Positions 2,401 to 16,800 of a stretch of DNA of 31,269 nucleotides are shown here, piece after piece (position 1 is the stretch's first letter; each line of letters starts with the position of its first letter). This DNA is from a virus. The stretch spans positions 1 through 31,269 of IMG/VR virus record IMGVR_UViG_3300023116_000208; one strand, written 5' to 3'. Under the pieces are notes generated by a model. The model was not told where the DNA came from. It was given only the letters and a program-made list of their open reading frames with translations, and did no database searches. The position numbers and the translations under genes are program-made.

Positions 2401-2790
2401 TTATGCTAATGGGATAGATGGGCGTCTAAATTCTACCAAGATTTGATCATTGATAGATGTGCCCGTTTGATTTACGTTAGGAATGACAAAGCATGTAGGG
2501 AAAAACGTAGAGTCTGTAGCCTCTGCGGGTTGTACCTTACCGCCAGCCATCGCAGAGAAGCGAGGGGTGGCACTAAGGTCTGCTACCGCTTCACCTGAGA
2601 TTACTTTAGTTTCACCGCTTGTTACCACGTCCACAGCTTCACCCGCAGATGCGGCACGCTGTGCTACACCAATGCAAGCCACGTCTGTAGGTAAAGCAGT
2701 AATAGCCACTTTGCCGTTACTGTCTACACTTACTAGTGAGTACTCAGTGACAGCACTAGCACAAATAAAAGAATGTACTTGATTATTCAT
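2401..2790 (-). CDS. Capsid decoration / cement protein (DUF2190-like)
   Basis: A 129-residue, Ala/Val/Thr-rich beta protein containing SLVSVDSNGKVAI, CIGVAQRAASAGEAVDVVTS and SGEAVADLS. The order, a 'value now, offset, Gly-x-Ala-V' beta pattern, is typical of small head decoration proteins of the DUF2190 type that stud the capsid surface. It sits between the protease/scaffold and the capsid gene, the usual place. GGAG lies 7 nt upstream of the ATG at 2790. The call is by composition, size and context; no catalytic residues are expected. Confidence 0.65.
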   Translation of the reverse strand: MNNQVHSFICASAVTEYSLVSVDSNGKVAITALPTDVACIGVAQRAASAGEAVDVVTSGETKVISGEAVADLSATPRFSAMAGGKVQPAEATDSTFFPTCFVIPNVNQTGTSINDQILVEFRRPSIPLA

Positions 2791-2792
2791 TA

Positions 2793-3446
2793 TTAAACTC
2801 CATAAGCTTTGCGATAAGATACGGGATCTTGATCACGCACAATGTTTAAAGCTTCACTAAATGTGATTTGTTTCTCAGTAGCTAAAGTCTTGATCTTCTC
2901 ACTTAAAGTAGCTTTAGAGATCTCTTGACCGCTTGCACCGTGGCCCACTTCTTGTAGGGGTACAGCTTGACCGCTGGGGCGTTCGCTAAACATCTGCCAA
3001 AATGTGGGTTGTAGTTCTTTCATGTGCCACGCATCTACAGCAAACTTACGCTCAGCGGGTGTAATCTTGCCCTCACTAAGAAGTTGATTAACCGCTTTAT
3101 CACACTTAATAGCGTTATTCTCTTTAACTACAGTGTTAAGCTGCTCTTTAAGTGCTTGCACTTCATTAAGTAGAGCTACATTGGATGTATTGAATGATTC
3201 AGACATTTTTTTAACTTTGTCCTCATCCTCATTCTCATCCTCTGATTTTTTCTCATTATCATCATGCTCAGCCATCTTAGACTTATCATCATCATAATGC
3301 TCTTTAAGCTCTTCTTTTTTCTCATCCTCAGCCATAAGCTTAGATTCATTCTCAGCTTTCATATCTGCGAGCTGTGCTTCAAGTTGCTTAACTAGGGCAT
3401 CCTTAGCCTCTAGTTTAGCCATGAGCTCTTTTACTTGATCATCCAT
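2793..3446 (-). CDS. Nested in-frame scaffold protein (gpZ-like internal start)
   Basis: Codon 436 of the protease gene is an ATG at 3446 preceded by a perfect GAGGAG at 3453-3458 with 6-nt spacing, a stronger signal than many gene starts here. Initiation there would give a separate 217-residue protein starting MDDQVKELMAKLEAK, exactly at the junction between protease and coiled-coil scaffold. In Mu, genes I and Z have this arrangement, with the scaffold also made alone from an internal start in the protease gene. The function would be internal scaffolding of the procapsid in many copies, with few copies of the protease-fused form. The sequence signal is direct; its use is inferred. Confidence 0.65.
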   Translation of the reverse strand: MDDQVKELMAKLEAKDALVKQLEAQLADMKAENESKLMAEDEKKEELKEHYDDDKSKMAEHDDNEKKSEDENEDEDKVKKMSESFNTSNVALLNEVQALKEQLNTVVKENNAIKCDKAVNQLLSEGKITPAERKFAVDAWHMKELQPTFWQMFSERPSGQAVPLQEVGHGASGQEISKATLSEKIKTLATEKQITFSEALNIVRDQDPVSYRKAYGV

Positions 3447-4751
3447 ATTTAGCTCCTCACTTAATGTAATACGATCAATAGTGTTATGTGACTGTGCGGG
3501 GCGGGGTGTGAGCGTGATAGCTAAAAGCTGGGCCTCACCTAGCTTGCTGCCATCTCCCCTACTGAATATGTCGCCGTGGATATACTCAGGGCTTGACCAC
3601 AAGACTCCGCCCGCATTTTTAACAACCTCTAAGCCCCGCTCATTGTAAGCGGGCACAGCATAAAGGCCATCTTCTTTAATTTCTAAATCTACTATCATGC
3701 CTAGTGCGTTCCCACTTTCGGGCGGGGCGGGTGTGCCCCCTTGAAATGGGCTAGTAGCATGCTGCCAGTCAATAATCACGGGTGACTCTGCTTTATGCTC
3801 ATTGAATACCCGCACTAGCTCTGTTAGTAAATCTTGATCTATGGGCTTGCCTACTTTGTCACCACTGAGCCTGCTTGATACTTGACCCAGTGATAATGTC
3901 TTAAATGGCTTGCCTACTGTTAGTCCCTCTGGCACGTCATAAGATGAGCTATCACTTAAAAGAATAGCCTCACCATACGCTCTAAGGGATTGCGTTTTAT
4001 TATCCGCTGCGTTCATTTGTTTAACTACTTTCTTAGCAAAAGAATAGCCCGCATCACCGCCCCAGCCATCCCACGCCTGGCGGCCCTTGCCGTACTCATC
4101 CCAAGTGCTACCTTGTTTATCCACCTCATGGCGGGTAAAGTATGCAAGCATTCTACGCACTGTATTTGGGGATAGCTCACGGCCGTTAGCTAGATCACGG
4201 GCACGTGCTAAGCCTACTGAGGTCATGCCACGCTGAGAGGGGGGCTTTTCTGCTCTTTTCTTTAGAGCCCTAGCCGCCGCCTCTTGTGCCCCCTTGGGAG
4301 GGGTGAAGTTTATATGTGAATACTTTTGAGGCATAGCTAATGCCGTGGCCTCTGTCTTAGCGTCTGACTTTTGAGGATGGCCAGCGGGTAATAAATCTAA
4401 ATCACCTGTATAGGCTTTTTTTCTCTCACCTGTGCCCACAAGTTTTAGGAATGCTTTAACGCGGGCTAGTGCCCACTGCTCGCGGCTTGTAACATTAGGC
4501 CTATGAGATACACTATAAGCCCCCGCCCCACGTCTATAGACTGCCTTAAGCTTGCCCATGTCTACACGCTTTTTAGGTGACTTATACTTATCGTTATGCT
4601 TATTGCGTAGATTAACCAAGGCTTTCTCTGTGGATTCTGATATTTTAATATCACCACGTGAGCCACTAGCACTACCCTCTGGGTTTTTAGTGCTGCCCTT
4701 AATTCTATCTTTAGGCGGTGCGGGCGTCTGTGCCTGTGTACGCTTAACCAT
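2793..4751 (-). CDS. Mu I-like prohead protease fused to N-terminal DUF5824-type modules and C-terminal scaffold
   Basis: This 652-residue protein has at least four parts. Residues ~62-121 match the DUF5824 pattern (LKAVYRRGAGAYSVSHRP, WALARVKAFL). Residues ~176-247 form a module often seen next to phage proteases (GLARARDLANG, RHEVDKQG, GWGGDAG). Residues ~260-430 are a Mu gpI-like maturation protease, with VIIDWQHAT at 325-333 and WSSPEY at 385-390; the His and Ser there are the likely catalytic residues. Residues ~436-652 are a highly charged coiled coil (Glu/Lys/Asp-rich, ~437-555) plus a tail, as expected of an internal scaffold removed during maturation. The start at 4751 has AGGAGG 7 nt upstream. 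Mu I is normally about 360 residues, so the N-terminal modules are extra. The first ~35 residues are basic and low complexity. Confidence 0.8.
   Translation of the reverse strand: MVKRTQAQTPAPPKDRIKGSTKNPEGSASGSRGDIKISESTEKALVNLRNKHNDKYKSPKKRVDMGKLKAVYRRGAGAYSVSHRPNVTSREQWALARVKAFLKLVGTGERKKAYTGDLDLLPAGHPQKSDAKTEATALAMPQKYSHINFTPPKGAQEAAARALKKRAEKPPSQRGMTSVGLARARDLANGRELSPNTVRRMLAYFTRHEVDKQGSTWDEYGKGRQAWDGWGGDAGYSFAKKVVKQMNAADNKTQSLRAYGEAILLSDSSSYDVPEGLTVGKPFKTLSLGQVSSRLSGDKVGKPIDQDLLTELVRVFNEHKAESPVIIDWQHATSPFQGGTPAPPESGNALGMIVDLEIKEDGLYAVPAYNERGLEVVKNAGGVLWSSPEYIHGDIFSRGDGSKLGEAQLLAITLTPRPAQSHNTIDRITLSEELNMDDQVKELMAKLEAKDALVKQLEAQLADMKAENESKLMAEDEKKEELKEHYDDDKSKMAEHDDNEKKSEDENEDEDKVKKMSESFNTSNVALLNEVQALKEQLNTVVKENNAIKCDKAVNQLLSEGKITPAERKFAVDAWHMKELQPTFWQMFSERPSGQAVPLQEVGHGASGQEISKATLSEKIKTLATEKQITFSEALNIVRDQDPVSYRKAYGV
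3453..3458 (-). promoter_or_regulatory. Internal ribosome-binding site for nested scaffold
   Basis: GAGGAG on the minus strand, 6 nt before an in-frame ATG (3446) within the protease gene. It falls in codons for Glu-Glu-Leu at the protease-scaffold boundary, so the coding sequence could carry it by chance, but the position matches the domain boundary precisely. Confidence 0.6.
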
Positions 4752-4893
4752 TACGCCGCCTCCTAATAAGCTGCTCAGCGAGTAAAGCCGCCCCCCCGCC
4801 TGTGGCGTTAGCTGTGGCAGTTCTCTCTAGTGCTGATCTTTGGGCATCCTCTGGCAAGTCACCCGCCCCTAATCTTTCACGTATAGCCCGCTA
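4744..4893 (-). other. In-frame continuation of the portal frame beyond a TAG
   Basis: After the TAG at 4891-4893 the portal frame stays open for 48 sense codons and ends in TAA at 4744-4746, overlapping the start of the next gene by 8 nt. The first residues after the TAG read RAIRERLGAGDLPEDA, which looks like the normal end of DUF935 portal proteins (an acidic Asp-Asp-x-Leu, then a helical Arg-Glu-Arg-Leu-Gly segment). The rest is Ala/Thr/Gly-rich and ends in LLAEQLIRRRRNG. The codon style matches the surrounding genes. Without it, this would be the only gap of more than 100 bp within the capsid gene cluster. Confidence 0.7.
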
Positions 4894-6147
4894 TAATTCG
4901 TCATCTGGTGTTAATAATCCATATTGAACTAACGGCCCTAACATTCCCAAGGACTCTGCCAAATCATCTGTATCTAGCCCCGTGTGCACTAAGCGGGGTA
5001 ACTTGCTAGCTTCTACCGCACCATAGTTAAACTTAATCAAGCGGCCTATGGTGCCCGCCCCGCTTCTATCTACGCCACTTACTCTACTAGCTACTATGTC
5101 ACATAAGTTAATAGCGGCACGTCTAAACATGGATAAGTGAACTTCACCCACTGAGCGTGAGCCTGTATCTGTTATACCTAGGTTAGCAAACTGTGCTAAG
5201 AATGCTTGACTAATTTGATTGTCACACTCTTTAATAATATCTAGCGGGCCCTGAGAATATAGATAAGGGGTAGTGCTATAGCTATCAAACTTAACGGCGG
5301 CATTCTCTATTAAATATGCTTGCTCAGCGGCTAAGAATGCTTGAGCCTGTGCCTCCGCATCATTTACCATGGCGTCTATATCAGAATCATTAAGCCCTTG
5401 TAGCTCTGCTACTGATCTATCTACAGTTACTTTGGGTGTAGGTATGGCCCATCTATCTAAGCCCACGCACATCATATTACTTACACGTTGCTTAGTACGC
5501 CACCACCACCATACAGGGCGTAACATTCCTACGCCCTCAAAATTAGAGCCCGTCTTATTAAGCGTGAGAAGTAGTAGCTTATTAGCTGGTATGGGCTTAG
5601 GTATCTTAGTGATGCCTACCGTATTTTGAAGCACCCCGTCTAAATGCTGCCCATCTCTACTAAGCCACTCGTTATGTGCTGAGGGTTCACGGTCCGCATA
5701 ATAGTCTAGCCATATCTTTGTACGGCCCTCACTATCAAGCCCCACTTTATAAACTTCCTCAGCATATCTATAGCCTAGTGGTACATATTCAAATAAATAA
5801 GCTAATTGCTCCTCCCATGACATAGACATTTGGCCCGCGTAGCCATCAAAGCCCCACGCCTCATTAGCGTAGCGGGCTAGCTCCTCTGCCATGGGGTCAT
5901 GTTCTATGCCAGGCTCAAAACGCCATGTGGCACTTAGTAAAGTCTGACGTAACATGTGCCATGATCTTCTAACTACGGGGTCAGTCCTAAGCATCTCCTC
6001 AGCTTCATTAACCCAGTTAAGCCCCGTTAACCGTGTATTATTCTCATAGCCTGAAATACTGCCGCCACTTAGCTGTGTGCCCGTGATTCCGTAGGTTCTA
6101 AAATTTGGATAGCGTGCTTTTAAGTGTTTAGTATTTCTATTATTCAT
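4891..6147 (-). CDS. Portal protein (DUF935 / Mu gp29-like), ends at TAG
   Basis: The 418-residue product is a DUF935-type portal: RSWHMLRQTLLSATWRFEPG near residues 60-79, FEYVPLGYRYAEEVYK, VWWWWRTKQR, LAQFANLGITDTGSRSVGEVH and the ending LVQYGLLTPDDEL. Portals form the dodecameric ring for DNA entry and tail attachment. The stop is TAG, and the same frame continues with family-like sequence for 48 codons (see the extension feature), so the complete protein may be about 467 residues. The ATG at 6147 is preceded not by a free ribosome-binding site but by an 8-bp hairpin that contains AAGGG. It is followed by the protease/scaffold gene as in Mu-type heads. Confidence 0.8.
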   Translation of the reverse strand: MNNRNTKHLKARYPNFRTYGITGTQLSGGSISGYENNTRLTGLNWVNEAEEMLRTDPVVRRSWHMLRQTLLSATWRFEPGIEHDPMAEELARYANEAWGFDGYAGQMSMSWEEQLAYLFEYVPLGYRYAEEVYKVGLDSEGRTKIWLDYYADREPSAHNEWLSRDGQHLDGVLQNTVGITKIPKPIPANKLLLLTLNKTGSNFEGVGMLRPVWWWWRTKQRVSNMMCVGLDRWAIPTPKVTVDRSVAELQGLNDSDIDAMVNDAEAQAQAFLAAEQAYLIENAAVKFDSYSTTPYLYSQGPLDIIKECDNQISQAFLAQFANLGITDTGSRSVGEVHLSMFRRAAINLCDIVASRVSGVDRSGAGTIGRLIKFNYGAVEASKLPRLVHTGLDTDDLAESLGMLGPLVQYGLLTPDDEL

Positions 6148-6171
6148 AGTAACCCTTAAACGTGGGTTACT
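6148..6171 (-). promoter_or_regulatory. Hairpin directly in front of the portal start codon
   Basis: On the minus strand AGTAACCC and GGGTTACT form a perfect 8-bp stem with an 8-nt loop, and the 3' arm ends at the base before the portal ATG. The only ribosome-binding-like sequence (AAGGG) lies in the loop end and 3' arm, so folding would hide it. Read on the plus strand the same element is followed by TTTTT. A role in limiting portal translation (12 copies per head) is an inference. Confidence 0.5.
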
Positions 6172-6182
6172 TTTTACCCACT

Positions 6183-6377
6183 CTATTTAAGACTATTATT
6201 ACTATCCTCTAAAGCTTTGTCAATATTAGGGGGTAATAAATTACTCACTATGTCACAAAACAGCTTAACACTGTCTATGTATTCCTCTTGAGTAAAATTA
6301 TCTTTAGCATCTACTAGCATCTTGCGTGCTAGCTCTGTGATAGTGTTAGCTGTGTTAATATTCATGCTTGACCCCAT
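6183..6377 (-). CDS. Small protein of unknown function
   Basis: A 64-residue frame from ATG 6377, or 60 residues from the second Met (ATG 6365), which has GGGG closely upstream. The product is acidic and predicted helical (ITELARKMLVDAKDNFTQEE, LFCDIVSNLLPPNIDKALED), with no membrane segment or known motif. It ends in TAG; two codons later there is a TAA in frame. It sits between the terminator after the sigma-like gene and the portal gene, so it would be the first gene of a capsid transcript. I do not recognise the family. A role related to terminase or portal is possible only from position. Confidence 0.5.
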   Translation of the reverse strand: MGSSMNINTANTITELARKMLVDAKDNFTQEEYIDSVKLFCDIVSNLLPPNIDKALEDSNNSLK

Positions 6378-6435
6378 GCTTTAAGTGTGATAAAAGATAA
6401 TCACATATAAGATTAGGTCTCCCTGTGAGGCGAAA

Positions 6436-6472
6436 GAAAAGAGCTAAACTTCCTACGGTCATGGCTCTTTTT
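6436..6472. terminator. Inverted repeat with T-tract, likely bidirectional terminator
   Basis: The arms AAAAGAGC (6437-6444) and GCTCTTTT (6464-6471) pair around a 19-nt loop, directly after the stop of the sigma-like gene. On the plus strand the 3' arm runs into nine T; on the minus strand, the direction of the genes, the 3' arm reads GCTCTTTTCTTT. The loop is long for an intrinsic terminator, so efficiency is uncertain. If it works it separates the packaging/sigma genes from the portal-capsid genes. Confidence 0.5.
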
Positions 6473-6474
6473 TT

Positions 6475-6927
6475 TTATCCTAAGTTAGCCAGATCTTCAC
6501 GCATCACTCTAGTATGTGAGAATATAGTATTATGATTCATGCCTATAATTTTACTTATATCTTGGGCGGTATATCCTAAAGCTTTAAACTTAAGTATCTC
6601 TTTATATTTACTGCGGGCTATGAGCTGCCTACAATATACATACTGAGTAGCATCATGAATGGGCTCATCTTGTCTAGCCGCATATGTCTCTAACGCTCTA
6701 GCAACTATGCCAACATGACGCACATTATTTAAATGTATACGCCGCATGACTACAGTTACAAAGCCCGTGGGGGTGCCCTTGCTAGCTGTGTACTTATCAG
6801 CATTATCTATAATCTTAATTAGTGTGTCTTGCACCAGGTCATGTGCTTTATCTATGTTCTTAGTAAGTCGCATAGCTTGCTTAAGCATAAACTTGTTTTC
6901 ATATAGTTTTAGTATCTCATCATTCAT
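6475..6927 (-). CDS. ECF-like RNA polymerase sigma factor
   Basis: A 150-residue protein with the two-domain plan of small ECF sigma factors. Residues ~10-70 look like region 2 (AMRLTKNIDKAHDLVQDTLIKI, where DLVQDT is characteristic; then GFVTVVMRRIHLNN). Residues ~100-147 look like region 4, with a helix-turn-helix (ILKFKALGYTAQDISKIIGM followed by NHNTIFSHTRVMREDL). It would direct host RNA polymerase to phage promoters. It overlaps no neighbour but starts 2 bp after the methyltransferase stop, and a terminator-like hairpin follows it. Its place in the packaging operon, before the portal gene, suggests a late-gene switch. It could instead be a sigma-like DNA-binding protein without core binding. 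Confidence 0.75.
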   Translation of the reverse strand: MNDEILKLYENKFMLKQAMRLTKNIDKAHDLVQDTLIKIIDNADKYTASKGTPTGFVTVVMRRIHLNNVRHVGIVARALETYAARQDEPIHDATQYVYCRQLIARSKYKEILKFKALGYTAQDISKIIGMNHNTIFSHTRVMREDLANLG

Positions 6928-6928
6928 T

Positions 6929-8101
6929 TTAAAATAACTCTAGTTGTGTATCTTGTTTATCTTCTTTAACATCACTATAGATAGGCTCATAGTTTAGCGT
7001 CCAATATTTAAGCCTAGCCTCAGCCACCTTAACATATTCTAACTCACGCTCTATGCCTATGCACTCAAAGCCTAGCAAGTTAGCTGCTATAGCCGTGGTG
7101 CCACTGCCTAAGAATGGCTCTAATATTGTGCCACCTGGCGGGGTGATTAGCTTACATAAGTACTTCATTAGCTCAATAGGCTTAACCGTAGGATGGATGT
7201 TAGCTTTAGGTTGCTGCCCGCTTATACCTGCGTAGGGGTTAGCTTTCTTACTACCATCTTTATGTTTCATAACTAAGCCCGCAGATCCCTCTTTTCTGCC
7301 TGTAAGCTCTGCATTTGTTTTTTTTCTAAGCCCATCTAGCCCCGCCTGGCGTTCGTTAGGTTGCGCCTTGGCACAATAAAAGAATCTGTTTACACTAGGG
7401 GCTTGAATATCTAGCAGGTTGCTTGCATGCTCATCTAGTATAATATTCATGGGGTAGCGGCCTTTATTGTTTTGTACATAGTTTGTATGTCGAAATATAT
7501 GATGAGGCTTTGCTTTACCCCCCTCATGTAAAACCTCCCCTGTCTGCTTTCTACAAGCATCTATATTTATGCCCCCTGTACCATGCTTTAAAACATTCTC
7601 AGCTACACTGCCTATAAGTTGCTTGCGTACTAAAAGGATAGGCTCATAAGCGGGTTTTAATGCTGTGCCCCATCCATCATACTTATTAGCCCCTTTAATT
7701 TTATAAATAGCCTTACTAACATCATGAGACTTAGGGAAACCGCTACCATATAGCCACTGTAAAACATCTCTAATCTCAAAGCCCGCAACCCTCAAAGATA
7801 GCCCCATTAAGTCTTGAGTACGTGACCCCGCAAAGATTAGAGCATGTGCCCCAGGCTTCATTACCCTATATACCTCACGCCATAAGGCGGGCGGTGGCAC
7901 GAAGCCATCCCATGATTTACCCATGAAGCCTTTAGCAGCGGGTAAGTAACTATAGTTACCTAGTGCCCACTCTTTAAGACATGACATCAGGGCACTATGT
8001 GAGATATTGGATAATCCATAAGGCGGATCACTCACCACAGCATCTATAGAGTTATCATCTAGCTTAGTAAGCTCATGCAAGCTATCGCCATGTATTATCA
8101 T
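6929..8101 (-). CDS. Beta-class DNA N6-adenine / N4-cytosine methyltransferase
   Basis: The 390-residue protein begins MIIHGDSLHEL and has catalytic motif IV DPPY at residues 25-28 and the SAM-binding motif I EPFLGSGTT at ~328-336. Motif IV before motif I, with a long variable target-recognition region between, is the beta class of amino-methyltransferases. VKPIELMKYL before motif I is the usual motif X. The start ATG at 8101 overlaps the TAA of the large terminase (TAATG), with AGGAG upstream. No restriction partner is adjacent, although a PD-(D/E)XK-like gene lies two genes upstream. It probably modifies phage DNA to evade restriction or to mark DNA for packaging or transcription; the target sequence cannot be read from the protein. 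Confidence 0.9.
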   Translation of the reverse strand: MIIHGDSLHELTKLDDNSIDAVVSDPPYGLSNISHSALMSCLKEWALGNYSYLPAAKGFMGKSWDGFVPPPALWREVYRVMKPGAHALIFAGSRTQDLMGLSLRVAGFEIRDVLQWLYGSGFPKSHDVSKAIYKIKGANKYDGWGTALKPAYEPILLVRKQLIGSVAENVLKHGTGGINIDACRKQTGEVLHEGGKAKPHHIFRHTNYVQNNKGRYPMNIILDEHASNLLDIQAPSVNRFFYCAKAQPNERQAGLDGLRKKTNAELTGRKEGSAGLVMKHKDGSKKANPYAGISGQQPKANIHPTVKPIELMKYLCKLITPPGGTILEPFLGSGTTAIAANLLGFECIGIERELEYVKVAEARLKYWTLNYEPIYSDVKEDKQDTQLELF

Positions 8102-9459
8102 TAAAAGCTCCTAGTCTTAGCTGAGCCTACTTTAACATCTTTGTTAATGCGTTTAGCCCGTGGTGTGTAGCTGCGGTGTGACTCTGTCCAGTGATGAAAT
8201 ATGCAATCATACCGCAAAGCGTCTAAAGGGTCCTCTCGCCCATCTTTCTTAGGTTGCTCTTTAGTATCCCATGCGTAACTTAATAATGCTTTCCTTAAGC
8301 TATTGCCCGTGGCCCGCTCCCCCCGTTCCCACACCTCACGAGTGATAAGATACTTATTACTATTAAATGCCCGCTTTAATCTTTGCACCCCGTTTAAAAT
8401 ATCTATCCTTACAGGGTCAGTCGTAGAGCGTAGGGGCAAGCCTATGCCACCCTCACTAGGCGTTTTACGGATAAGCCTAAAAGCACTAAGCCCCGTATGG
8501 TCCGACCTAGCCCGCCCCGCTTTATCTGCCACGCCCGTATCTATCCATATTCTTTTACCTGGTGCGGATGACTGCATAGACCGTGGCCATGCTACTTGTA
8601 GGATCATTGTACTTAGCTGCTCTATAGTGACCTCTTGCGGGTTAATCTCATGTACCACTATAGATGCTTCCCTAACCTCATCATAGACTATAACTAGTAC
8701 GCTAGGCTTCCTAAAGCCCCAGTCTATAGCGATACGCCCGCCCATGGATGGACTATACTTAAAGTTATCTATCACATGCCTATCTGGGTTAAACTCAGAA
8801 TACACTAGCCCACTAGGCGGCTTAGGTTTATTTAGCACCATGGCCTCACGCTCATCATTAGGTAAAAGCTCAGTGGCCTTAAACCACTCATCTGATAGAT
8901 TATCTTGATTTACGTAAGATGTATAGAGTAATGGTGTGCAGTTAGCTTGCTCAGCAAGCTTACACCACCAGGCATCTATCACGGGCAAGCCTACTAAAAC
9001 CATGATGGGGGATGGCCCGCTACGCAAGCGGCCTAAAGCCTTATATGCCACCTCCGCTGTAAGCGTCTGACATTCATCTATGAATACTACCCCGCTTGTT
9101 ATGTTAAGTCCCTCTAATGGGTTGTGGGTAGCCTCTCGCGTACCTGGCCTATAGTATGATCTACACCATACACTAGACCCCGTATGTGTATCTAGCCACA
9201 CCTTATTAGTGTGATTATAAGACCACCCTAAAGGGGCTAGCCACTTCTCTATTTCTGGCATAAGTACTGAGTTATAGCGGGGCGTGGTATCTGTCACTAT
9301 GAGCGAGCTAGTGCCTGGCCTCATCTTAGCCACTGTGAGTAGTGAAAACACTAAAGCACTAGTCTTGCCACTTCCCCAGCCACAGCGGGCACTAATAACT
9401 TTATCTTCACGCAAAATAGCACTAATGATAGATAATTGTAGCTCATTTAATATTACCAC
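8101..9459 (-). CDS. terL: Terminase large subunit
   Basis: A 452-residue packaging motor. The ATPase domain has a Walker A-type loop RCGWGSGKT at 25-33, in which the usual first Gly is Cys, and Walker B VVFIDE at 124-129. The RNase H-like nuclease domain starts with IAIDWGFRKP (Asp246), with further acids in WIDTGVADKAG and EDPLDALRYD near the C-terminus. It cuts concatemers and pumps DNA through the portal. The start is GTG at 9459: an in-frame TAA lies directly upstream, so no earlier start is possible. It overlaps the end of the upstream nuclease-like gene by 17 bp and is coupled to the methyltransferase by TAATG. Confidence 0.92.
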   Translation of the reverse strand: MVILNELQLSIISAILREDKVISARCGWGSGKTSALVFSLLTVAKMRPGTSSLIVTDTTPRYNSVLMPEIEKWLAPLGWSYNHTNKVWLDTHTGSSVWCRSYYRPGTREATHNPLEGLNITSGVVFIDECQTLTAEVAYKALGRLRSGPSPIMVLVGLPVIDAWWCKLAEQANCTPLLYTSYVNQDNLSDEWFKATELLPNDEREAMVLNKPKPPSGLVYSEFNPDRHVIDNFKYSPSMGGRIAIDWGFRKPSVLVIVYDEVREASIVVHEINPQEVTIEQLSTMILQVAWPRSMQSSAPGKRIWIDTGVADKAGRARSDHTGLSAFRLIRKTPSEGGIGLPLRSTTDPVRIDILNGVQRLKRAFNSNKYLITREVWERGERATGNSLRKALLSYAWDTKEQPKKDGREDPLDALRYDCIFHHWTESHRSYTPRAKRINKDVKVGSAKTRSF

Positions 9460-10435
9460 TTATACTATCCATGTGCTCAGTGAATCGTTTAAAATCATCC
9501 TCATCGGGTATATACTTCTCATTCATAAATATAATTAGTAAGTCAGACTCTTTAAGCATCTCTAAAAAGCTTGGTTTAAAGCCGTATCTAATAGAGCTCT
9601 TATATAGAGTAGCCTCTAGTGTACTTTTATCTAAATCAAACATATCACCCCGCCACTCTATAACTAAGCTCATAGCCCCAGTGCCCACGGCCCCCGCTAA
9701 TGATCTTAAAATATTAGAGGTAGCTCTTTTAGAATTATCATAAAAGCCTGAGTCCATCATAATATCATGTAAATGCTGCCATCCTCTTAAGGGCTTTTGA
9801 TCATATCTAATATAAAAGTATTTGCTCTTAAGTCGTCTTGAAATCATGGGGGGCTTATTGTCCCTCTCTTGAATGGTTTCTAACTGCGGTGTGGGCGGTA
9901 TAATTTCAAGTTTAACACATCGGGGCCTATCTAAGTTATTAAATAAATCGTGAATGCTACCACTATCCTTAATGTCTTCATAATAAGATGCAAGGGGGCG
10001 GGGCTCAGTCCATACCTTAGTATTACTATCACCATAGTACATCATGACTTGAGCGTCTCTAAAATTCCACCCATCACGATTAGTGGCCGTGTACATAAAG
10101 ACGGGCACTATAAAATAATTATTAAATAGCTCACTCTTTAACTCTTTAAGAATAGCACTTTTAACTGAGTCTTTCACATTAACTTGGCTATCTTTAACTA
10201 GCCTAGTCTTAACTTCAATTACTAGCACTTGCTCATACTCATCATAGTATAAAGCATCACATACAGGGATTTCACCGCCTGTGGATTCTCTAAATGTAAA
10301 CGGATTACGCTGCTTATAATAGTTGCCCATATTGCACCGCTTAATCATGGATGCGAATAAAAAGAGGCAGTGATTATGGATATTGAGATTTAAAGCACGT
10401 GCCTCTAAATCTTCTTTACTTAGTTTAGTATTCAT
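9443..10435 (-). CDS. PD-(D/E)XK nuclease-like protein between terminase genes
   Basis: A 330-residue protein I cannot place in a named family. Residues 50-78 contain the core of a PD-(D/E)XK nuclease: acidic residue E55, D60 in GGEIPVCDALYY, then a hydrophobic strand ending in IEVK (E74, K76). The flanks predict alternating helices and strands (YYDEYEQVLVIEVKTRLV, NYFIVPVFMYTA). The C-terminal half (from ~200) has a basic stretch and a helical region but no motif I can name. It lies between the small and large terminase genes and overlaps the latter by 17 bp, so it may process DNA ends, degrade host DNA or resolve branches before packaging. GGAG is 14 nt from the ATG, so initiation may be weak. 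Confidence 0.6.
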   Translation of the reverse strand: MNTKLSKEDLEARALNLNIHNHCLFLFASMIKRCNMGNYYKQRNPFTFRESTGGEIPVCDALYYDEYEQVLVIEVKTRLVKDSQVNVKDSVKSAILKELKSELFNNYFIVPVFMYTATNRDGWNFRDAQVMMYYGDSNTKVWTEPRPLASYYEDIKDSGSIHDLFNNLDRPRCVKLEIIPPTPQLETIQERDNKPPMISRRLKSKYFYIRYDQKPLRGWQHLHDIMMDSGFYDNSKRATSNILRSLAGAVGTGAMSLVIEWRGDMFDLDKSTLEATLYKSSIRYGFKPSFLEMLKESDLLIIFMNEKYIPDEDDFKRFTEHMDSISGNIK

Positions 10436-10484
10436 GATAGCTATGATTTACTCCTATCTTTTTTTAGGGGTGTTTTGTGTTAAG

Positions 10485-10522
10485 ACTAAAAAGCTCAGCT
10501 ATTACCAGTTGAGCTTTTTAGT
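10485..10522. terminator. 13-bp perfect hairpin over the end of terS
   Basis: ACTAAAAAGCTCA (10485-10497) and TGAGCTTTTTAGT (10510-10522) are perfect complements around a 12-nt loop, with an A-rich 5' arm and T-rich 3' arm on either strand. The stop codon of the terminase small subunit (10495-10497) lies in the stem. This is the strongest simple hairpin in the window. It could stop or attenuate transcription entering the nuclease and large terminase genes, or protect the 3' end of a terS transcript. Confidence 0.65.
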
Positions 10523-10965
10523 TTATCCTGTGCTTGCTTAATAAACGATAGCACTTGCTCAGTGCCATCTGTTTTATTGACGTTTAAATCTAATTCTTTG
10601 CGGGCTCCCCATTCTCTAGGATAGCGGCGGTCTAGTATCCATGCCGCCGCCCGCCAGTCATCATGGGCTTGTTGCTTAATGATCTCTAGCATCTGTGCTT
10701 CAAAAGCTGGTCGGGTGCTATTAACCGCTTCATTAAAGTCTGGATACTTTTCCATCCAATTATAATAGGTCTGCTCACTAATGTTAACAATACCACATAC
10801 AGCTTTAATGGATAAGCCCGCTACTAGACCATCGCATATGGCGTCTACTATCTCAGCACAATACTTAGTACGTTTATATGTACGCGTTATACTCAAGTCT
10901 CCTCTAGCACTAGCTGCCTCACGTTTAGCTAGACCCTCTAAAGCTTTGTTATCTATTGATCCCAT
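10495..10965 (-). CDS. terS: Terminase small subunit
   Basis: This 156-residue protein has the pattern of many phage small terminases: a basic N-terminal segment (RTYKRTKYCAEIV), an HTH at ~47-78 (GLVAGLSIKAVCGIVNISEQ, then TYYNWMEKYPDF), and a central helical region with DDWRAAAWILDRRYPREWG, the W-x-A-A-x-W-x-L-x-R-R-x-P motif, before a short charged tail. It binds the packaging site and loads the large subunit. The ATG at 10965 has GGAGG upstream inside the ssb gene and overlaps its end by 13 bp. Its 3' end lies in a strong hairpin. The large subunit follows after one intervening gene rather than directly. Confidence 0.85.
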   Translation of the reverse strand: MGSIDNKALEGLAKREAASARGDLSITRTYKRTKYCAEIVDAICDGLVAGLSIKAVCGIVNISEQTYYNWMEKYPDFNEAVNSTRPAFEAQMLEIIKQQAHDDWRAAAWILDRRYPREWGARKELDLNVNKTDGTEQVLSFIKQAQDKLKSSTGNS

Positions 10966-11366
10966 GGAATAAAGCCTCCATCATTAGTATCTAAGTCTAG
11001 CTCTGGCTTCTTTTCTAAATTAGATGCCCATCTTTCTTTAGCAGTAGTAAGCTTATTAAGGGGCGTAATCTTATCACACATTACATAGTATGCGGTTACT
11101 TTCTTACCCTCTTTGTTTTCGTAGCTATCACTTCTAAATTTACCCTCTATGTAAACCTTAGACCCCTTGCCCAGCTTAAGTGCTTTCTCAGCTACATAGC
11201 CAAAGCATTTAATTTTATGCCAGGTAGTAAGATCTTTAAACTCTCCACTTTCTTTATCTTTAATATATTCAGAAGTGGCTAAATTAAAAGTTACTAGCTT
11301 ACTATAGCTAGGGGATTGCTCAGGATCTGCCCCCACATTACCTATTAACATTATTTTATTAAGCAT
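10953..11366 (-). CDS. ssb: Single-stranded DNA-binding protein
   Basis: A 137-residue OB-fold SSB: MLNKIMLIGNVGADPE, FNLATSEYIKDK, TTWHKIKCFGYVAEKALKLG, KGSKVYIEGKF and YENKEGKKVTAYYVMCDKI follow the bacterial SSB pattern. It coats single strands in replication and recombination. The usual acidic C-terminal tip (Asp-Asp-Ile-Pro-Phe) is changed: after an acidic stretch (ELDLDTNDGG) it ends FIPWDQ. The stop is TAG and lies inside the terS start region. The ATG at 11366 overlaps the regulator's stop, with AAGGGG 7 nt upstream. Being in the same operon as terminase, rather than with the initiator, is unusual. Confidence 0.92.
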   Translation of the reverse strand: MLNKIMLIGNVGADPEQSPSYSKLVTFNLATSEYIKDKESGEFKDLTTWHKIKCFGYVAEKALKLGKGSKVYIEGKFRSDSYENKEGKKVTAYYVMCDKITPLNKLTTAKERWASNLEKKPELDLDTNDGGFIPWDQ

Positions 11367-11622
11367 CTAGCTGCCCCTTTATAGTTGTGATTTGGAAGTC
11401 AAGATCTCTTATAGAGTTAAAAAGCTTATCTCGCTCATTCTCTAAATAAGTTACCCTATCATTTAATGATAAGTTAGTGGGTACGCCCGTGGCCATCATT
11501 TCTTGTATGATCTGCCTAACGGCTTGCCCTCTGCTTATAACTTGGGCACTTGCTATGCTATCTAAATATTCTACTTGCTCTGAAAGTAGGGAGACTGTTA
11601 CTTGTGTTTTATTACTAGACAT
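11359..11622 (-). CDS. Ribbon-helix-helix regulator with coiled-coil tail
   Basis: An 87-residue protein. Residues 5-44 fit a ribbon-helix-helix (CopG/MetJ-like) DNA-binding fold: a short strand TQVTVSLL, then helices SEQVEYLDSIASAQ and SRGQAVRQIIQEMM. Residues ~52-86 form a heptad-like coiled coil (RVTYLENERDKLFNSIRDLD), which would oligomerise dimers. It is the first gene of the minus-strand packaging operon and is transcribed divergently from thyX, with 57 bp between the two ATGs, so it is a good candidate to regulate both. A strong ribosome-binding site (AGAGGTGAT) lies close to the ATG. It overlaps ssb by 8 bp. Confidence 0.7.
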   Translation of the reverse strand: MSSNKTQVTVSLLSEQVEYLDSIASAQVISRGQAVRQIIQEMMATGVPTNLSLNDRVTYLENERDKLFNSIRDLDFQITTIKGQLDA

Positions 11623-11679
11623 ATATCACCTCTAATGTTACTTATAATAAATTACTTTAACTTAATCAAGAGTAAGTTT
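11623..11679. promoter_or_regulatory. Divergent control region between RHH regulator and thyX
   Basis: These 57 bp separate two divergent ATGs. TATAAT at 11643-11648 is a consensus -10 for thyX and, as TTATAATAA is nearly palindromic, could also serve the other strand; I see no good -35. TTACTT occurs at 11638-11643 and 11652-11657 (14-bp period), with a third copy at 11598-11603 inside the regulator gene. These could be half-sites for the adjacent RHH protein, which typically binds short repeats. Confidence 0.4.
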
Positions 11680-12336
11680 ATGAAAAAAAAGATAGATGAC
11701 TTTGGCTTTATAGAGCTAGTGGATACCATGGGCAGTGCTACCAGTGTAGTTAATGCTGCCCGTGTGAGCTTTGGCAAAAGAGTAGAGGGCGGCTTAACAG
11801 ATAAAGATAAGAATTTAATTAAATACTTATGGACGCATAAGCACACCTCCCCCTTTAGACATGCGTTTTTTACATTCCATATTAAGGCCCCTATATTCGT
11901 AATAAGGCAGTGGCAAAAGCACCAGGTAGGCTGTTCATGGAATGAGATAAGCGGGCGGTATGTTAAACTAGATCATAGCATTTATTGCCCTGATGTGTGG
12001 CGTAAGTCCATTAAAGATGTTAAGCAAGGCAGCGGGGGTGCTGTGAATAATCAAGAGGCTATCACAGACTTATACTTATCAGCGTGTGAGTATAGTTATG
12101 CTGCTTATAAAGAGATGCTTAAGCAAGGGGTAGCTCGTGAGCAAGCCCGCATGATATTGCCCTTGGCTCAGTTTACAGAGTGCTATTGGAGTGCCTCACT
12201 GCATGCCGTAATACACTTTTTACAGCTAAGACTAGCTAAGGATGCACAGGCAGAAATCAGATATTATGCCCAGGCTATTAGGGCACTAGTAGAGAATGAC
12301 GAAAGCTTTAAGTTTATAATGGATGTATGCTTATGA
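11680..12336 (+). CDS. thyX: Flavin-dependent thymidylate synthase, divergent
   Basis: The 218-residue protein fits ThyX: SPFRHAFFTFHIKAPIFVIR, then the signature region KHQVGCSWNEISGRY at 80-94, and the C-terminal REQARMILPLAQFTECYWS, HFLQLR and AQAEIRYYAQAI. ThyX makes dTMP from dUMP using FAD, NADPH and methylene-tetrahydrofolate. The canonical R-H-R-x2-S-x-N-E-x-S-x-R-Y is altered: the first Arg is Lys, the second is Gln, and there is one extra residue before N-E. The usual N-x-R before the S-L-x-x-F-L-x-L-R segment reads S-x-H. I chose the ATG at 11680, which lies after the upstream -10-like sequence, over an upstream frame opening into the regulator gene. It overlaps the deaminase gene by ATGA. 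Confidence 0.88.
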   Translation: MKKKIDDFGFIELVDTMGSATSVVNAARVSFGKRVEGGLTDKDKNLIKYLWTHKHTSPFRHAFFTFHIKAPIFVIRQWQKHQVGCSWNEISGRYVKLDHSIYCPDVWRKSIKDVKQGSGGAVNNQEAITDLYLSACEYSYAAYKEMLKQGVAREQARMILPLAQFTECYWSASLHAVIHFLQLRLAKDAQAEIRYYAQAIRALVENDESFKFIMDVCL

Positions 12337-12776
12337 ATAAGTGGCATAAACACTGGCTAGAGCATGCTAAACTATTCGCTAGTGCCTCATACTGCCCACG
12401 TGGTAAAGTAGGGGCCTTTATAATTGATGCTAATAATAATCCCATAAGTGCAGGCTTTAACGGGGCCCCCCGTAAAGCAGTGGGCTTGCTATGCGGTGGG
12501 GAGGCTTGTGATAGGGATAGATACCATATAGAGAGTGGCACCCGTATAGAGTGGGGATGTCATCATGCAGAGCAAAACGCCATAGCTAATGCCGCCCGTG
12601 CGGGCATAGCTTTAGAGGGGTGTACTATGGTGATAAGTACTAATCCATGTTTAGCATGTGCCCGCCTTATTCATCATGCGGGGCTTAAAACAGTGGTAGT
12701 GAGTGCAGATAGTAAATATAATAGAGACGGCTTAGACTATCTTGAGAGGCACCATATAAGCGTTATATCCATCTAG
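12333..12776 (+). CDS. dCMP deaminase
   Basis: A 147-residue (149 from an alternative ATG at 12327) zinc-dependent deaminase. The catalytic zinc site is visible as HAEQN in GCHHAEQNAIANAARAG and PCLAC in TNPCLACARLI; CPRGKVGAFIID and GFNGAPRK are typical of the dCMP deaminase family. It converts dCMP to dUMP, the substrate of ThyX encoded just upstream. ATG 12333 forms an ATGA overlap with thyX and has GGA 9 nt upstream, so I prefer it. It ends in TAG and converges with the helicase loader gene, overlapping it by 14 bp on opposite strands. Confidence 0.9.
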   Translation: MNKWHKHWLEHAKLFASASYCPRGKVGAFIIDANNNPISAGFNGAPRKAVGLLCGGEACDRDRYHIESGTRIEWGCHHAEQNAIANAARAGIALEGCTMVISTNPCLACARLIHHAGLKTVVVSADSKYNRDGLDYLERHHISVISI

Positions 12777-13629
12777 ATACCTCTTGACCCTTAGCACGTC
12801 TATCTGGCCCTATCATGTGCAGTGGGTTACCAAAGATGTTTTGAAGTCTACTAAGTGCCATCTCGTTACGGTCTAAAAGCTTAGTAAAGATTTGCTTAGG
12901 CGTAAGATTGCTAGTTAATATTATGCTTAGCTGCCCTGCTCTGTACTTCTCATACATGATGCCTATAAGCTCTATAGTGGTAGTAGTAAACCATTCACTA
13001 TAATTAGAACGTCCCCCCAGGCCGCCAAATTCATCCAATAAAAGAATATCAACATTATCTAGCATAGAATCTAAGAAGCTATCATTAGTGCCCCATGATT
13101 TCTTTTCATTTTGAAAAGCATGATGATGATGCACATATTTAACTTTATAGCCCGCCATGCTCAAGTGCTTAGCAATGATATAGCTTATAGTGCTTTTACC
13201 ATTACCGCTTTTACCATACATAAAAAGCGAGGGCGGTATATGGGGGAGGTAGCTGCTTAGAATATCACTAATCATAGCTTGCTGTGCGGGGCTATCATAA
13301 ATGTAATTAGCTAAGGAGGCATCATAGGCATCATTAGGCAAGTGTGCCCTCTGTAATCTATTTAGTGCCTGTGCTAGATTAGAACATGTAGGACATGGCA
13401 AAGCCATAGGCTTAAAGCCATCTCGCTTATAAACATAACCGTTAGCACAATTACATGGGACCTCACCCGCTACTAAGTAGCGTGCTTTGCCGCGTTTAAT
13501 TAAATCATATGTATGCAATGAATCTGCATTAACTGTTTTGAGATATTCAGGAGGCGGGGGCGGCTTAGCACCTGGTGCTATGTTGATGCCATCCAATATG
13601 CTTATAAGTGCAGTGCCTAATTTTTCCAT
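12763..13629 (-). CDS. DnaC-like replicative helicase loader
   Basis: A 288-residue AAA+ ATPase: Walker A GKSGNGKST at 139-147, Walker B ILLLDE at 195-200, and sensor-like LTSNLTP. The N-terminal part has a probable zinc site, C59-x-C61 and C79-x2-C82 (PCNCANG ... PCPTC), and a Pro-rich stretch (PPPPPEY). This is the DnaC/DnaI plan: the N-terminal zinc domain contacts the DnaB helicase and the AAA+ domain binds single strands. It starts at ATG 13629 within the last codons of the initiator gene, as lambda P follows O, with AGGGGG upstream. No helicase gene is in the window, so it probably loads the host DnaB. Confidence 0.85.
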   Translation of the reverse strand: MEKLGTALISILDGINIAPGAKPPPPPEYLKTVNADSLHTYDLIKRGKARYLVAGEVPCNCANGYVYKRDGFKPMALPCPTCSNLAQALNRLQRAHLPNDAYDASLANYIYDSPAQQAMISDILSSYLPHIPPSLFMYGKSGNGKSTISYIIAKHLSMAGYKVKYVHHHHAFQNEKKSWGTNDSFLDSMLDNVDILLLDEFGGLGGRSNYSEWFTTTTIELIGIMYEKYRAGQLSIILTSNLTPKQIFTKLLDRNEMALSRLQNIFGNPLHMIGPDRRAKGQEVSRWI

Positions 13630-14363
13630 GTTACCCCCTCGTTAGCAATCTCGTATCTAATAAACTTTTGAGTCTGTGCACCTGGTGTGATGTTAAACCA
13701 TTGGGCACGCTTCAATAGCTCAGCTTTAGCTTGTGAGTAATTAGTAAATTTATTTAGACGCTGCCAAGTAGGCTCCTGTGATAGTCTATATTCTAATACA
13801 TCTGGCCTTAGCTCATCCGCATTACAAGGGCCATCAATATTAAAATTATGACTAGCATAGTAAGCTCTGTAATGTTCATAATCTGAGTTATCCGTATTGT
13901 TATTATTATTGTTAATATTGTTATATATTGTATTGTATGACAATTTGTCACTATCCATAGTGACATTCTGGCATATACCTAGTGACATTTTGTCACTACC
14001 CCTAGTGACATTTTGACATGATGACATTTTGTCATATGACAATTTGTCACTATCATTTACGTTAATTTGTTTTACTTCACTGTGAAAGATTACTAAATGA
14101 TGTACTGTTATGCTTGTGGGTGTGTTCTTAGCTTGAATGCGTTTAGTATCCTTACTTATCCACCCCAGCTGCTCTAACTCATCTAGTGCTCTTAGTACAC
14201 TGCGGTAACTGACTTTAGCAAAATCAGCTATAGACTTTAATGCTATTGTTCTAGTCCATGTGTGCCAGTCTACTTTCATGAGTATAGTTAGCATTACTAC
14301 TTTAACAGTAGGTTTTATATCCGCTTGCATTACTGCATAGCGTAAGTCGTATTCATTAACCAT
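13617..14363 (-). CDS. Replication initiator (lambda O-like), carries origin iterons
   Basis: A 248-residue protein. Residues ~1-95 form a winged-helix DNA-binding domain (LKSIADFAKVSYRSVLRALDEL, then EQLGWISKD). Residues ~104-143 are a low-complexity linker of repeated SDKLS/SDKMS and CQNVT units, encoded by six 13-bp palindromic iterons; residues 144-161 (Asn-rich) are encoded by the adjacent AT-rich stretch. The C-terminal part (~162-248) likely binds the helicase loader. This is the arrangement of lambda O, where origin repeats lie inside the gene. GGAG is 5 nt from the ATG. It stops with TAG inside the start region of the loader gene. It should bind the iterons and recruit the loader and host helicase. 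Confidence 0.82.
   Translation of the reverse strand: MVNEYDLRYAVMQADIKPTVKVVMLTILMKVDWHTWTRTIALKSIADFAKVSYRSVLRALDELEQLGWISKDTKRIQAKNTPTSITVHHLVIFHSEVKQINVNDSDKLSYDKMSSCQNVTRGSDKMSLGICQNVTMDSDKLSYNTIYNNINNNNNNTDNSDYEHYRAYYASHNFNIDGPCNADELRPDVLEYRLSQEPTWQRLNKFTNYSQAKAELLKRAQWFNITPGAQTQKFIRYEIANEGVTWKN
13894..14049. other. Putative replication origin: six iterons and AT-rich unwinding region
   Basis: Six 13-bp palindromes of form TGACAWTTTGTCA (two degenerate in the right half) occupy 13938-14049, next to an almost pure AT stretch at 13894-13937. Both lie inside the initiator gene in frame. Starts are spaced 23, 22, 23, 16 and 15 bp, so the first four lie on nearly the same helix face. Iterons followed by an AT-rich DNA unwinding element match lambda ori. 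The repeats and geometry are visible; origin function is inferred. Confidence 0.75.
13938..14049. repeat. Six 13-bp palindromic iterons
   Basis: Copies: TGACAATTTGTCA at 13938 and 14037; TGACATTTTGTCA at 13983 and 14022; variants TGACATTCTGGCA at 13961 and TGACATTTTGACA at 14006. Four of six are near-perfect palindromes with a central A/T triplet, as expected for the site of a dimeric winged-helix initiator. Most are flanked by TAG on the left and CTA on the right, extending the symmetry. Confidence 0.9.
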
Positions 14364-14397
14364 GCTTTACTCCATGGGTGCGTGTGTTAAGCGTGCT

Positions 14398-14417
14398 ACA
14401 TAGCACATAGTCTATGT
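14398..14417. promoter_or_regulatory. Operator-like repeats at the initiator promoter
   Basis: ACATAG occurs at 14398-14403 and 14405-14410, and its complement CTATGT at 14412-14417, three half-sites at a 7-bp period. The last two form a perfect 6+1+6 palindrome. They begin at the -10 and run over the transcription start of the minus promoter, where a repressor would block the initiator operon. The HTH protein encoded at 15108 is one candidate ligand. Confidence 0.45.
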
Positions 14418-14445
14418 ATATATATATATGTGATTATCGCGTCAA
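14417..14445 (-). promoter_or_regulatory. Promoter for the initiator/helicase loader operon
   Basis: TTGACG (14440-14445) and TATATA (14417-14422) on the minus strand with a 17-bp spacer resemble a sigma-70 promoter. It would start about 45 bp before the initiator ATG. Repeated TA steps around the -10 leave the exact hexamer open. Confidence 0.55.
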
Positions 14446-14490
14446 GAAATATTATTATAAAAAAGTTTTTTATTTTTTTTAAAAAAAGAT

Positions 14491-14520
14491 TTGACATATA
14501 AAAAAGATTATGTTTATAGT
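14491..14520 (+). promoter_or_regulatory. Promoter for the plus-strand early operon
   Basis: A consensus -35 TTGACA (14491-14496) with TATAGT (14515-14520) at 18-bp spacing; a TTATAG shift gives 17 bp. A- and T-tracts at 14459-14488 just upstream resemble an UP element or bent DNA. Transcription would begin near 14527, giving a leader of about 50 nt before the first ATG. Confidence 0.65.
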
Positions 14521-14546
14521 TAATCATCACCAGGCGGCAACGTCAT

Positions 14547-14579
14547 TAACACAAACACTCTAAGGAGAGACAACATGAA
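14547..14579 (+). repeat. Repeated translation leader, copy 1
   Basis: A 33-nt segment holding ACACAAACACT, the ribosome-binding site CTAAGGAGAGACAAC and the ATGAA start, present again at 14854-14886 with one mismatch (T for C). It lies just before the first gene of the early operon. Confidence 0.85.
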
Positions 14580-14856
14580 TAACAGAGAAGCGACACATCA
14601 AGAAGTATCTAGCATGCTTAACTTTCTAAGATCATCAAGACCTACATTCTCATTAAATGATTTTGTTAATCAAGATGTATTACAAGACTTAAGCTTTTTT
14701 TATGATCAAGACTTTACTTGTGACTCTGCTATTGATTTCTTGCTTTCATTTCCAAGTAACGACTGGCTATTCATTGTTAATGAGAGTGGCCTTATCAATA
14801 TTGATAAACTATGCATTTGGGCTAGACTTAGCTTTAGAGATGCACTTACAAAATAA
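14575..14856 (+). CDS. Small protein of unknown function, first gene of early operon
   Basis: A 93-residue protein with no recognised motif. It is neutral to acidic with a polar N-terminus (MNNREATHQEVSSMLNFL) and a helical C-terminal half (SAIDFLLSFPSNDWLFIVNE, KLCIWARLSFRDAL). It has no signal peptide or membrane segment. AAGGAG precedes the ATG at good spacing, and its 33-nt leader is duplicated before the next gene. It is first after a strong promoter, a typical position for small host-takeover proteins, but no function can be assigned. Confidence 0.75.
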   Translation: MNNREATHQEVSSMLNFLRSSRPTFSLNDFVNQDVLQDLSFFYDQDFTCDSAIDFLLSFPSNDWLFIVNESGLINIDKLCIWARLSFRDALTK

Positions 14857-14886
14857 CACAAACACCCTAAGGAGAGACAACATGAA
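14854..14886 (+). repeat. Repeated translation leader, copy 2
   Basis: Second copy of the 33-nt leader (32 of 33 bases identical to 14547-14579). Its first three bases are the TAA stop of the preceding gene, so the repeat is the whole intergenic segment plus the next start codon. Confidence 0.85.
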
Positions 14887-15121
14887 CTTCTCATTAATTG
14901 ATACATTTGAGGACCCAGCAACAAAAGAGATCTTTGAGATTACTCAGATTTTAGAATATAAATTATATAATGGAGATCCAAGTTGCGAAGCAATGACATA
15001 TTTATATGTTCTTTCAGGCAATCATGCCACAGTAAGGGAACTATTTCACTACGAACTCATCCAGCTTATTAACAGTGACAATTTAATCGCTACTAAGGGA
15101 AAACAAAATGTTAAAAAATAA
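14882..15121 (+). CDS. Small acidic protein of unknown function
   Basis: A 79-residue protein starting MNFSLIDTFEDPATKEIFEI, predicted mostly helical and acidic, with a basic Lys-rich end. I recognise no family. I chose ATG 14882 because the duplicated AAGGAG leader lies directly before it. The gene overlaps the following HTH gene by 14 bp. Its sequence is not obviously related to that of its upstream neighbour despite the shared leader. Confidence 0.75.
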   Translation: MNFSLIDTFEDPATKEIFEITQILEYKLYNGDPSCEAMTYLYVLSGNHATVRELFHYELIQLINSDNLIATKGKQNVKK

Positions 15122-15305
15122 AATCAAATCAGAGCTAGCTATTAAAGGCTTAACCATGATTCAGCTAGCAGAGCATATGGGATTAACTTCTAGCGAGTTA
15201 ACTAACTTACTAAAAAGAGATATGAGAATGACTAGTGCGTTAAGACTAGCTAACTCTCACTATGCCTTAACTGGCGTACAGCTTACACTAGGAGACTTTA
15301 AATAA
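15108..15305 (+). CDS. Small helix-turn-helix protein (XRE/Cro-like)
   Basis: A 65-residue protein that is almost entirely one HTH domain: KSELAIKGLTMIQLAEHMGL then TSSELTNLLKRDMRMTSALRL, the pattern of Cro/C1-type repressors and of the plasmid HigA-type family. It could regulate the divergent promoter region about 0.7 kb upstream, where operator-like repeats lie. The start has AAGGG upstream and overlaps the previous gene; its TAA overlaps the next ATG (TAATG). No C-terminal oligomerisation or cleavage domain is present, so it resembles a Cro more than a full repressor. Confidence 0.7.
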   Translation: MLKNKIKSELAIKGLTMIQLAEHMGLTSSELTNLLKRDMRMTSALRLANSHYALTGVQLTLGDFK

Positions 15306-15685
15306 TGCTATATCTTTTAATCATTGCTTTAATAGCCCTAGCTCTTATGAGCTATCAAGATGTTACTGATTATTCTACTATAAAAGTAAGCAAGTATTCT
15401 AAGCAATTACAACATGATGTAGTGCTAGCACTATTTAAAACTATGCAACATTTAGAGCGGGTGCATGATGAGGATATACAGCACCTAATTAACATGAATG
15501 TACTTAATAAAATTAAAATTGAAGAACAAGCAGAGCAGCTACTTTTTACATGGGGTGAATTCCCTGGTGAGAAGCTAGACTTAGATGCCCGTGACTTCTC
15601 ACACCTTGTTAATGTCTATTCTGAATTCGTGCGAGGCACAGATGATGATTACATTAAACACTTAATTAACACACTATACCACTAA
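15305..15685 (+). CDS. Small membrane-anchored protein of unknown function
   Basis: A 126-residue protein with an N-terminal hydrophobic segment (LYLLIIALIALALMS, residues 2-16) that is probably a signal anchor, followed by a soluble helical part rich in His, Glu and Asp (QHLERVHDEDIQHLINMNVL, TDDDYIKHLINTL). The soluble part probably faces the cytoplasm or periplasm; orientation cannot be told. It overlaps the HTH gene by one base. No family recognised. An early membrane protein in this position could be a superinfection-exclusion or host-modifying factor, but nothing in the sequence shows it. Confidence 0.7.
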   Translation: MLYLLIIALIALALMSYQDVTDYSTIKVSKYSKQLQHDVVLALFKTMQHLERVHDEDIQHLINMNVLNKIKIEEQAEQLLFTWGEFPGEKLDLDARDFSHLVNVYSEFVRGTDDDYIKHLINTLYH

Positions 15686-15695
15686 GGAGTAACTT

Positions 15696-16634: not shown

Positions 16635-16638
16635 TTAA

Positions 16639-16681
16639 ATAGCGTGGGCTTTCATTACTAAACAACTAGCACCCACGCTAT
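16639..16681. terminator. 10-bp hairpin after the early operon
   Basis: ATAGCGTGGG (16639-16648) and CCCACGCTAT (16672-16681) form a perfect stem around a 23-nt loop, six bases after the RecT-like stop. There is no T-tract, so it may act as a 3'-end stabiliser or as a terminator needing other factors rather than a classic intrinsic one. Confidence 0.45.
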
Positions 16682-16690
16682 GTGTATACT

Positions 16691-16800
16691 AGCCTCCCCC
16701 TGGCTTAATTGCATTATAGTCATAGCAAAATCTAAAAGATAAGGGCCTACCTATGACTAGCTGGGGGCACCTTGCTAAAAGGAGAAACAAGGGCAAAAGG
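16691..16800 (+). other. Structured intergenic segment, possible noncoding RNA
   Basis: This non-coding stretch between two convergent genes holds nested pairings: TAGTCATAG (16717-16725) with CTATGACTA (16751-16759), CCCCC (16696-16700) with GGGGG (16763-16767), a small hairpin AGCC/GGCT whose loop is that C-run (16691-16705), and CCTTG (16770-16774) with CAAGG (16788-16792). The C-run could therefore form a pseudoknot. An AAAAGGAG at 16777-16784 has no ATG near enough to use it. No known riboswitch or ribozyme consensus was recognised. Confidence 0.35.

What the first reader, a model, noticed from the sequence alone, without database searches (positions are those of the whole stretch)
4744..4893. 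Portal gene interrupted by a TAG 48 codons before its natural end
Seen: TAG at 4891-4893, then 48 sense codons in the same frame to TAA at 4744, overlapping the next start. The continuation (RAIRERLG...) reads like a normal DUF935 C-terminus after PDDEL. Other phage genes here also stop at TAG, where the frame soon closes, so genome-wide recoding is unlikely. Options: programmed readthrough giving a few long portal subunits, a nonsense mutation, suppression by a host/phage tRNA, or assembly error. A portal ring with mixed C-termini would be novel.
Basis: partly seen in the sequence, partly recalled or inferred. Interest (0 to 1): 0.72.

Follow-up and report, generated by a model that had tools for sequence, protein, structure and literature searches.

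The report
Stray stop codon in one portal gene
In this one assembled phage sequence a single-base change (a chance mutation or a sequencing error) puts a stop near the end of the gene for the DNA-entry ring of the head; every relative has an ordinary uninterrupted gene, so nothing points to a new mechanism.

Summary
In detail: a TAG at 4891-4893 (minus strand) interrupts a Mu-type (Portal_Mu, PF06074) portal frame 48 sense codons before a TAA at 4744-4746 that overlaps the next gene's ATG. The 48-codon tail is genuine portal C-terminus, constrained in relatives. In 145 of 145 aligned IMG/VR loci the interrupted codon encodes glutamate (GAG 113, GAA 32; some loci are overlapping stretches of one contig). 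This Glu is invariant even in a Gordonia phage portal only 26% identical. A degenerate search of IMG/VR found no stop at that codon, against at least 120 stretches with Glu. The closest record is identical to the window over about 15.6 kb except for three substitutions, one of which is this TAG (G to T); the other 466 portal residues match. The stop is therefore a private single-base substitution: a fresh nonsense allele or a consensus error. Nothing supports programmed readthrough, TAG reassignment, or mixed portal rings. TAG is an ordinary terminator in this family (37 of 144 relatives end the portal with it), and no tRNA gene was found. Read data, not available here, would separate mutation from error. 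Low interest.

The parts
4891..6147 (-). Mu-type portal gene, codons 1-418 plus the premature TAG
   Evidence: ORF; Portal_Mu PF06074 E=3.9e-23; phrog_113 portal protein E=1e-29
4891..4893 (-). Premature TAG at codon 419; Glu (GAG/GAA) in all 145 aligned relatives; one G-to-T change relative to the closest record
   Evidence: no stop at this codon in the IMG/VR motif scans
4747..4890 (-). Portal C-terminal tail, codons 420-467, conserved in relatives but cut off here
   Evidence: mainly synonymous change among relatives; identical to the closest record
4744..4746 (-). Natural TAA end of the portal gene, overlapping the next gene's start (ATG 4751-4749), with an AGGAGG ribosome-binding site inside the tail codons
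   Evidence: sequence; an ATG at or beside the portal stop in 139 of 144 relatives
2793..4751 (-). Next gene: Mu-like protease I (C-terminal part) with an N-terminal extension; its start overlaps the portal end
   Evidence: Mu-like_Pro PF10123 E=2.9e-14

Best explanation
The TAG is an isolated point substitution (Glu419 codon GAG to TAG) private to this one assembled contig. It is either a recent nonsense allele captured in the assembly or a wrong base in the metagenomic consensus. It has no dedicated function. The normal product in this phage group is a single uninterrupted portal protein of about 467 aa. If the TAG is real, that genome copy would make a portal lacking its last 49 residues (inferred to be defective) and translation of the overlapping next gene would probably be weakened; it would survive only through leaky readthrough, a host suppressor tRNA, or complementation by intact co-infecting phages. 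Shown: the position, the conservation and the privacy of the change. Inferred: the effect on the protein, and whether it is mutation or error.
For: 145 of 145 aligned relatives have GAG or GAA at this codon. Glu419 is invariant in a 33-protein alignment that includes a 26%-identical Gordonia phage portal, and a 60%-identical portal in a Rhodospirillaceae MAG continues the same way, EDDLERSIRQRIGAG. Degenerate motif scans of IMG/VR gave 0 matches with TAA/TAG, 0 with TGA and at least 120 with Glu; the TAA/TAG pattern does match the window, as a positive control. The nearest record, IMGVR_UViG_3300023180_000244, has only three substitutions against the window between about 2,700 and 18,390: this one and two synonymous ones in the same gene. 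The 144 bases after the TAG show no decay. About 4.5% of random point changes in these genes would be nonsense, so one nonsense change among the 158 differences in the aligned 19.5 kb is not remarkable.
Against: No read coverage was available, so mutation and error cannot be separated. The portal region is not merely a clonal copy plus one error: GCC at codon 234 is shared with other relatives, so real strain variation is present too. A very recently acquired functional readthrough in this lineage alone cannot be excluded by comparison.
Confidence: 0.95

Rival explanations
1. Programmed stop-codon readthrough of the TAG, giving portal rings with a minority of long subunits.
For: The tail is open, in frame and conserved, and a leaky stop would yield a normal-length protein.
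Against: A programmed signal should be conserved, but every relative has a sense Glu codon and none has a stop. The nearest relative's portal protein differs at this position alone, so the surrounding sequence has not adapted.
Confidence: 0.01
2. The TAG is real and tolerated because the host carries an amber suppressor tRNA.
For: Amber suppression is well known in bacteria (own knowledge). The window is a fragment and the host is unknown, so a tRNA elsewhere cannot be excluded.
Against: No tRNA in the window or in nine related stretches scanned. TAG is used as an ordinary terminator by several other genes here.
Confidence: 0.03
3. TAG is reassigned to a sense codon in this phage (as in genetic code 15).
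For: Reassignment of TAG to glutamine is reported for crAss-like phages (PMC9523058, abstract as listed).
Against: Only this gene was found to have a conserved protein continuing past a TAG. Other genes here end at TAG with short tails or at the start of the next gene. 37 of 144 related portals use TAG as their final stop. The residue in relatives is Glu, not the Gln of code 15.
Confidence: 0.005
4. The natural portal ends at PDDEL and the tail is a remnant or a separate small gene.
For: None found.
Against: All aligned relatives run on through the tail. A Gordonia phage portal continues for a similar length, its CDS ending 57 codons (stop included) beyond the last aligned residue. Synonymous changes exceed non-synonymous ones in the tail among relatives.
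Confidence: 0.005

Closest known systems
Portal_Mu family (PF06074 / DUF935; phage Mu portal), phrog_113
   Same: The protein matches, and the match continues across the stop when it is read through. It lies in a head gene block next to a Mu-like protease.
   Different: Only the private TAG; no family-level difference.
IMGVR_UViG_3300023180_000244 (L002/G001)
   Same: 466 of 467 portal residues identical; about 15.6 kb of nearly identical DNA.
   Different: Has Glu at codon 419; the flanks diverge (103 substitutions in roughly the first 2.7 kb of the window).
Amber (nonsense) alleles of phage head genes
   Same: A single base change creating TAG in a structural gene (own knowledge of classical amber mutants).
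   Different: Found in an uncultured assembly, so it may be an error and its phenotype is unknown.

Membership tests
Mu-type portal protein (PF06074) | Significant match to the family profile above its curated cut-off | tested here: met
   82.8 bits against a cut-off of 23.9
Mu-type portal protein (PF06074) | Gene lies among terminase, protease and major head genes | tested here: met
   Terminase small subunit, terminase large subunit (partial match), Mu-like protease and major head protein matches around it
Programmed stop-codon readthrough gene | Stop codon conserved at the same place in relatives | tested here: not met
   0 of 145 relatives; 0 motif matches in IMG/VR
Programmed stop-codon readthrough gene | Both short and long products made | not testable with these tools
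   Needs virion proteomics
TAG-reassigned phage (code 15) | In-frame TAG in many conserved genes | tested here: not met
   Only the portal shows a conserved continuation; other TAGs end genes; TAG ends 37 of 144 related portals
TAG-reassigned phage (code 15) | Suppressor tRNA (CUA anticodon) in the phage | tested here: inconclusive
   None in the window or nine related stretches, but the window is a fragment

The most novel reading that the evidence does not exclude
A very recently arisen TAG in this one lineage is fixed and read through often enough, by a host suppressor or leaky decoding, to assemble working portal rings from short and long subunits.
Probability: 0.02. Interest if true: 0.5.

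Novelty: not a real feature. Interest (0 to 1): 0.05.

Why it matters
It mainly matters as a caution: an in-frame stop with a conserved downstream tail in a single metagenomic contig looks like recoding until relatives are aligned. If the allele were real and fixed, it would be a natural test of whether mixed portal rings can assemble, but nothing here suggests that.

Tried and rejected
Reading TAG as sense genome-wide: rejected, since other TAG-terminated genes have only short tails or abut the next gene. The in-frame TAG-ATG junction at 25267-25272 looked like a second readthrough candidate; relatives have TAG-ATG and TAA-TTG there, so it looks like two adjacent genes. The AlphaFold model of the intact relative came out at mean pLDDT 48.6, too poor to say what the lost tail does structurally, so no fold search was run. 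Solved portals (9mt4, 9c39, 11bp) align by sequence through profile positions 447, 435 and 429, past codon 419, which agrees with the tail belonging to the fold. Literature: no report of portal readthrough was found with the terms used; the single hit describes the P2 E/E' frameshift in tail genes. The G-to-T class is also the class made by guanine oxidation during DNA shearing (PMC5521083). A second difference at 5443, absent from the closest relatives, is of the same class, but two changes are too few to decide, and ATA at that codon also occurs in a more distant relative.

Full report
Observation. On the minus strand the ORF 6147-4891 encodes 418 residues ending PDDEL and stops at TAG 4891-4893. 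The same frame runs 48 codons further to TAA 4744-4746, which overlaps the start of the next gene. Openness alone would be weak evidence, because two other genes in the window have 39 and 43 open codons after their stops.

Identity. The protein is a Mu-type portal (PF06074, 82.8 bits; phrog_113, 104.4 bits). Reading through the stop lengthens both matches and raises both scores (84.9 and 110.9 bits). Neighbours include a terminase small subunit, a partly matched terminase large subunit, a Mu-like protease and a major head protein.

What relatives show. IMG/VR holds hundreds of relatives of the whole protein and of the 48-residue tail alone. In 145 loci with an aligned codon 419, all encode Glu: GAG in 113 and GAA in 32. 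Some loci are overlapping stretches of one contig, so the number of independent records is smaller. In an alignment of 33 proteins Glu419 is invariant, including a Gordonia phage portal of only 26% identity. A 60%-identical portal in a Rhodospirillaceae MAG also has Glu and the tail. Solved portal structures align by sequence past this point as well. Among ten relatives compared with the intact nearest homologue, synonymous changes outnumber non-synonymous ones in the tail as in the body. The tail is therefore ordinary, constrained portal sequence.

Search for the stop elsewhere. The TAA/TAG pattern matches the window itself. The collection may leave out records very near the window, so this shows absence in other records, not in the same population.

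The nearest record. IMGVR_UViG_3300023180_000244 aligns to the window over 19.5 kb at 99.08%. Between about 2,700 and 18,390 there are only three differences: 4893 (the TAG), 5443 and 5446, the last two synonymous in portal codons 235 and 234. The 144 bases after the TAG are identical, so there is no sign of relaxed constraint after the stop. Outgroups share the sense base at 4893, so the window carries the derived base. About 4.5% of random point changes in these genes would create a stop.

Recoding and readthrough. Other genes in the window end at TAG, and 37 of 144 related portals end with TAG. No tRNA gene was found in the window or in nine related stretches. A reassigned TAG would be expected in many conserved genes, and here only one shows a conserved continuation. 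A programmed readthrough stop should be conserved in relatives, and it is in none of those examined.

Mechanism, if the allele is real (inferred). The product would lack the last 49 residues, a conserved region. The natural portal stop overlaps the start of the protease gene, and an AGGAGG ribosome-binding site lies within the last tail codons; an ATG sits at or beside the portal stop in 139 of 144 relatives. A premature stop would probably weaken coupled translation of the protease, though its own ribosome-binding site remains. Such a genome would probably be defective unless suppressed or complemented. The structure model was too uncertain to add detail.

Mutation or error. This cannot be settled without reads. 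G-to-T is also the signature of guanine oxidation during DNA shearing (PMC5521083), and the difference at 5443 is of the same C:G-to-A:T class. On the other hand the codon-234 variant is shared with other relatives, so real strain variation is present. I put the two at roughly even odds.

Verdict. The stop itself is an isolated, private single-base change with no evidence of function.

Noticed in passing
window 2700-18390: About 15.6 kb is identical, apart from three bases in the portal gene, to IMGVR_UViG_3300023180_000244, while both flanks diverge sharply (103 substitutions in roughly the first 2.7 kb). This suggests recent recombination or a strain-mixed assembly.
   Followed up: partly
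window 25267-25272: A 1012-aa gene ends in TAG directly followed, in frame, by the ATG of a 226-aa gene. The abutting in-frame arrangement is kept in two relatives (TAG-ATG and TAA-TTG), so it looks like adjacent genes rather than readthrough.
   Followed up: partly
window 14547-14579 and 14854-14886: A 33-base leader containing a ribosome-binding site and an ATG is repeated 307 bases apart (97% identical), each before a small ORF.
   Followed up: no
window 22224-23719: Three copies of a 266-base repeat inside the 698-aa, possibly tail-fibre-like gene; a related record has similar repeats.
   Followed up: no
window 2793-4751: The protease gene carries an N-terminal extension matching phrog_2859 and DUF5824 ahead of the Mu-like protease region; a similar N-terminal extension occurs downstream of the portal in the Rhodospirillaceae MAG locus L155.
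   Followed up: no
window 6475-6927: A small protein with sigma-70 region 2 (PF04542, E=5.2e-11) lies between the portal and a DNA methylase gene.
   Followed up: no
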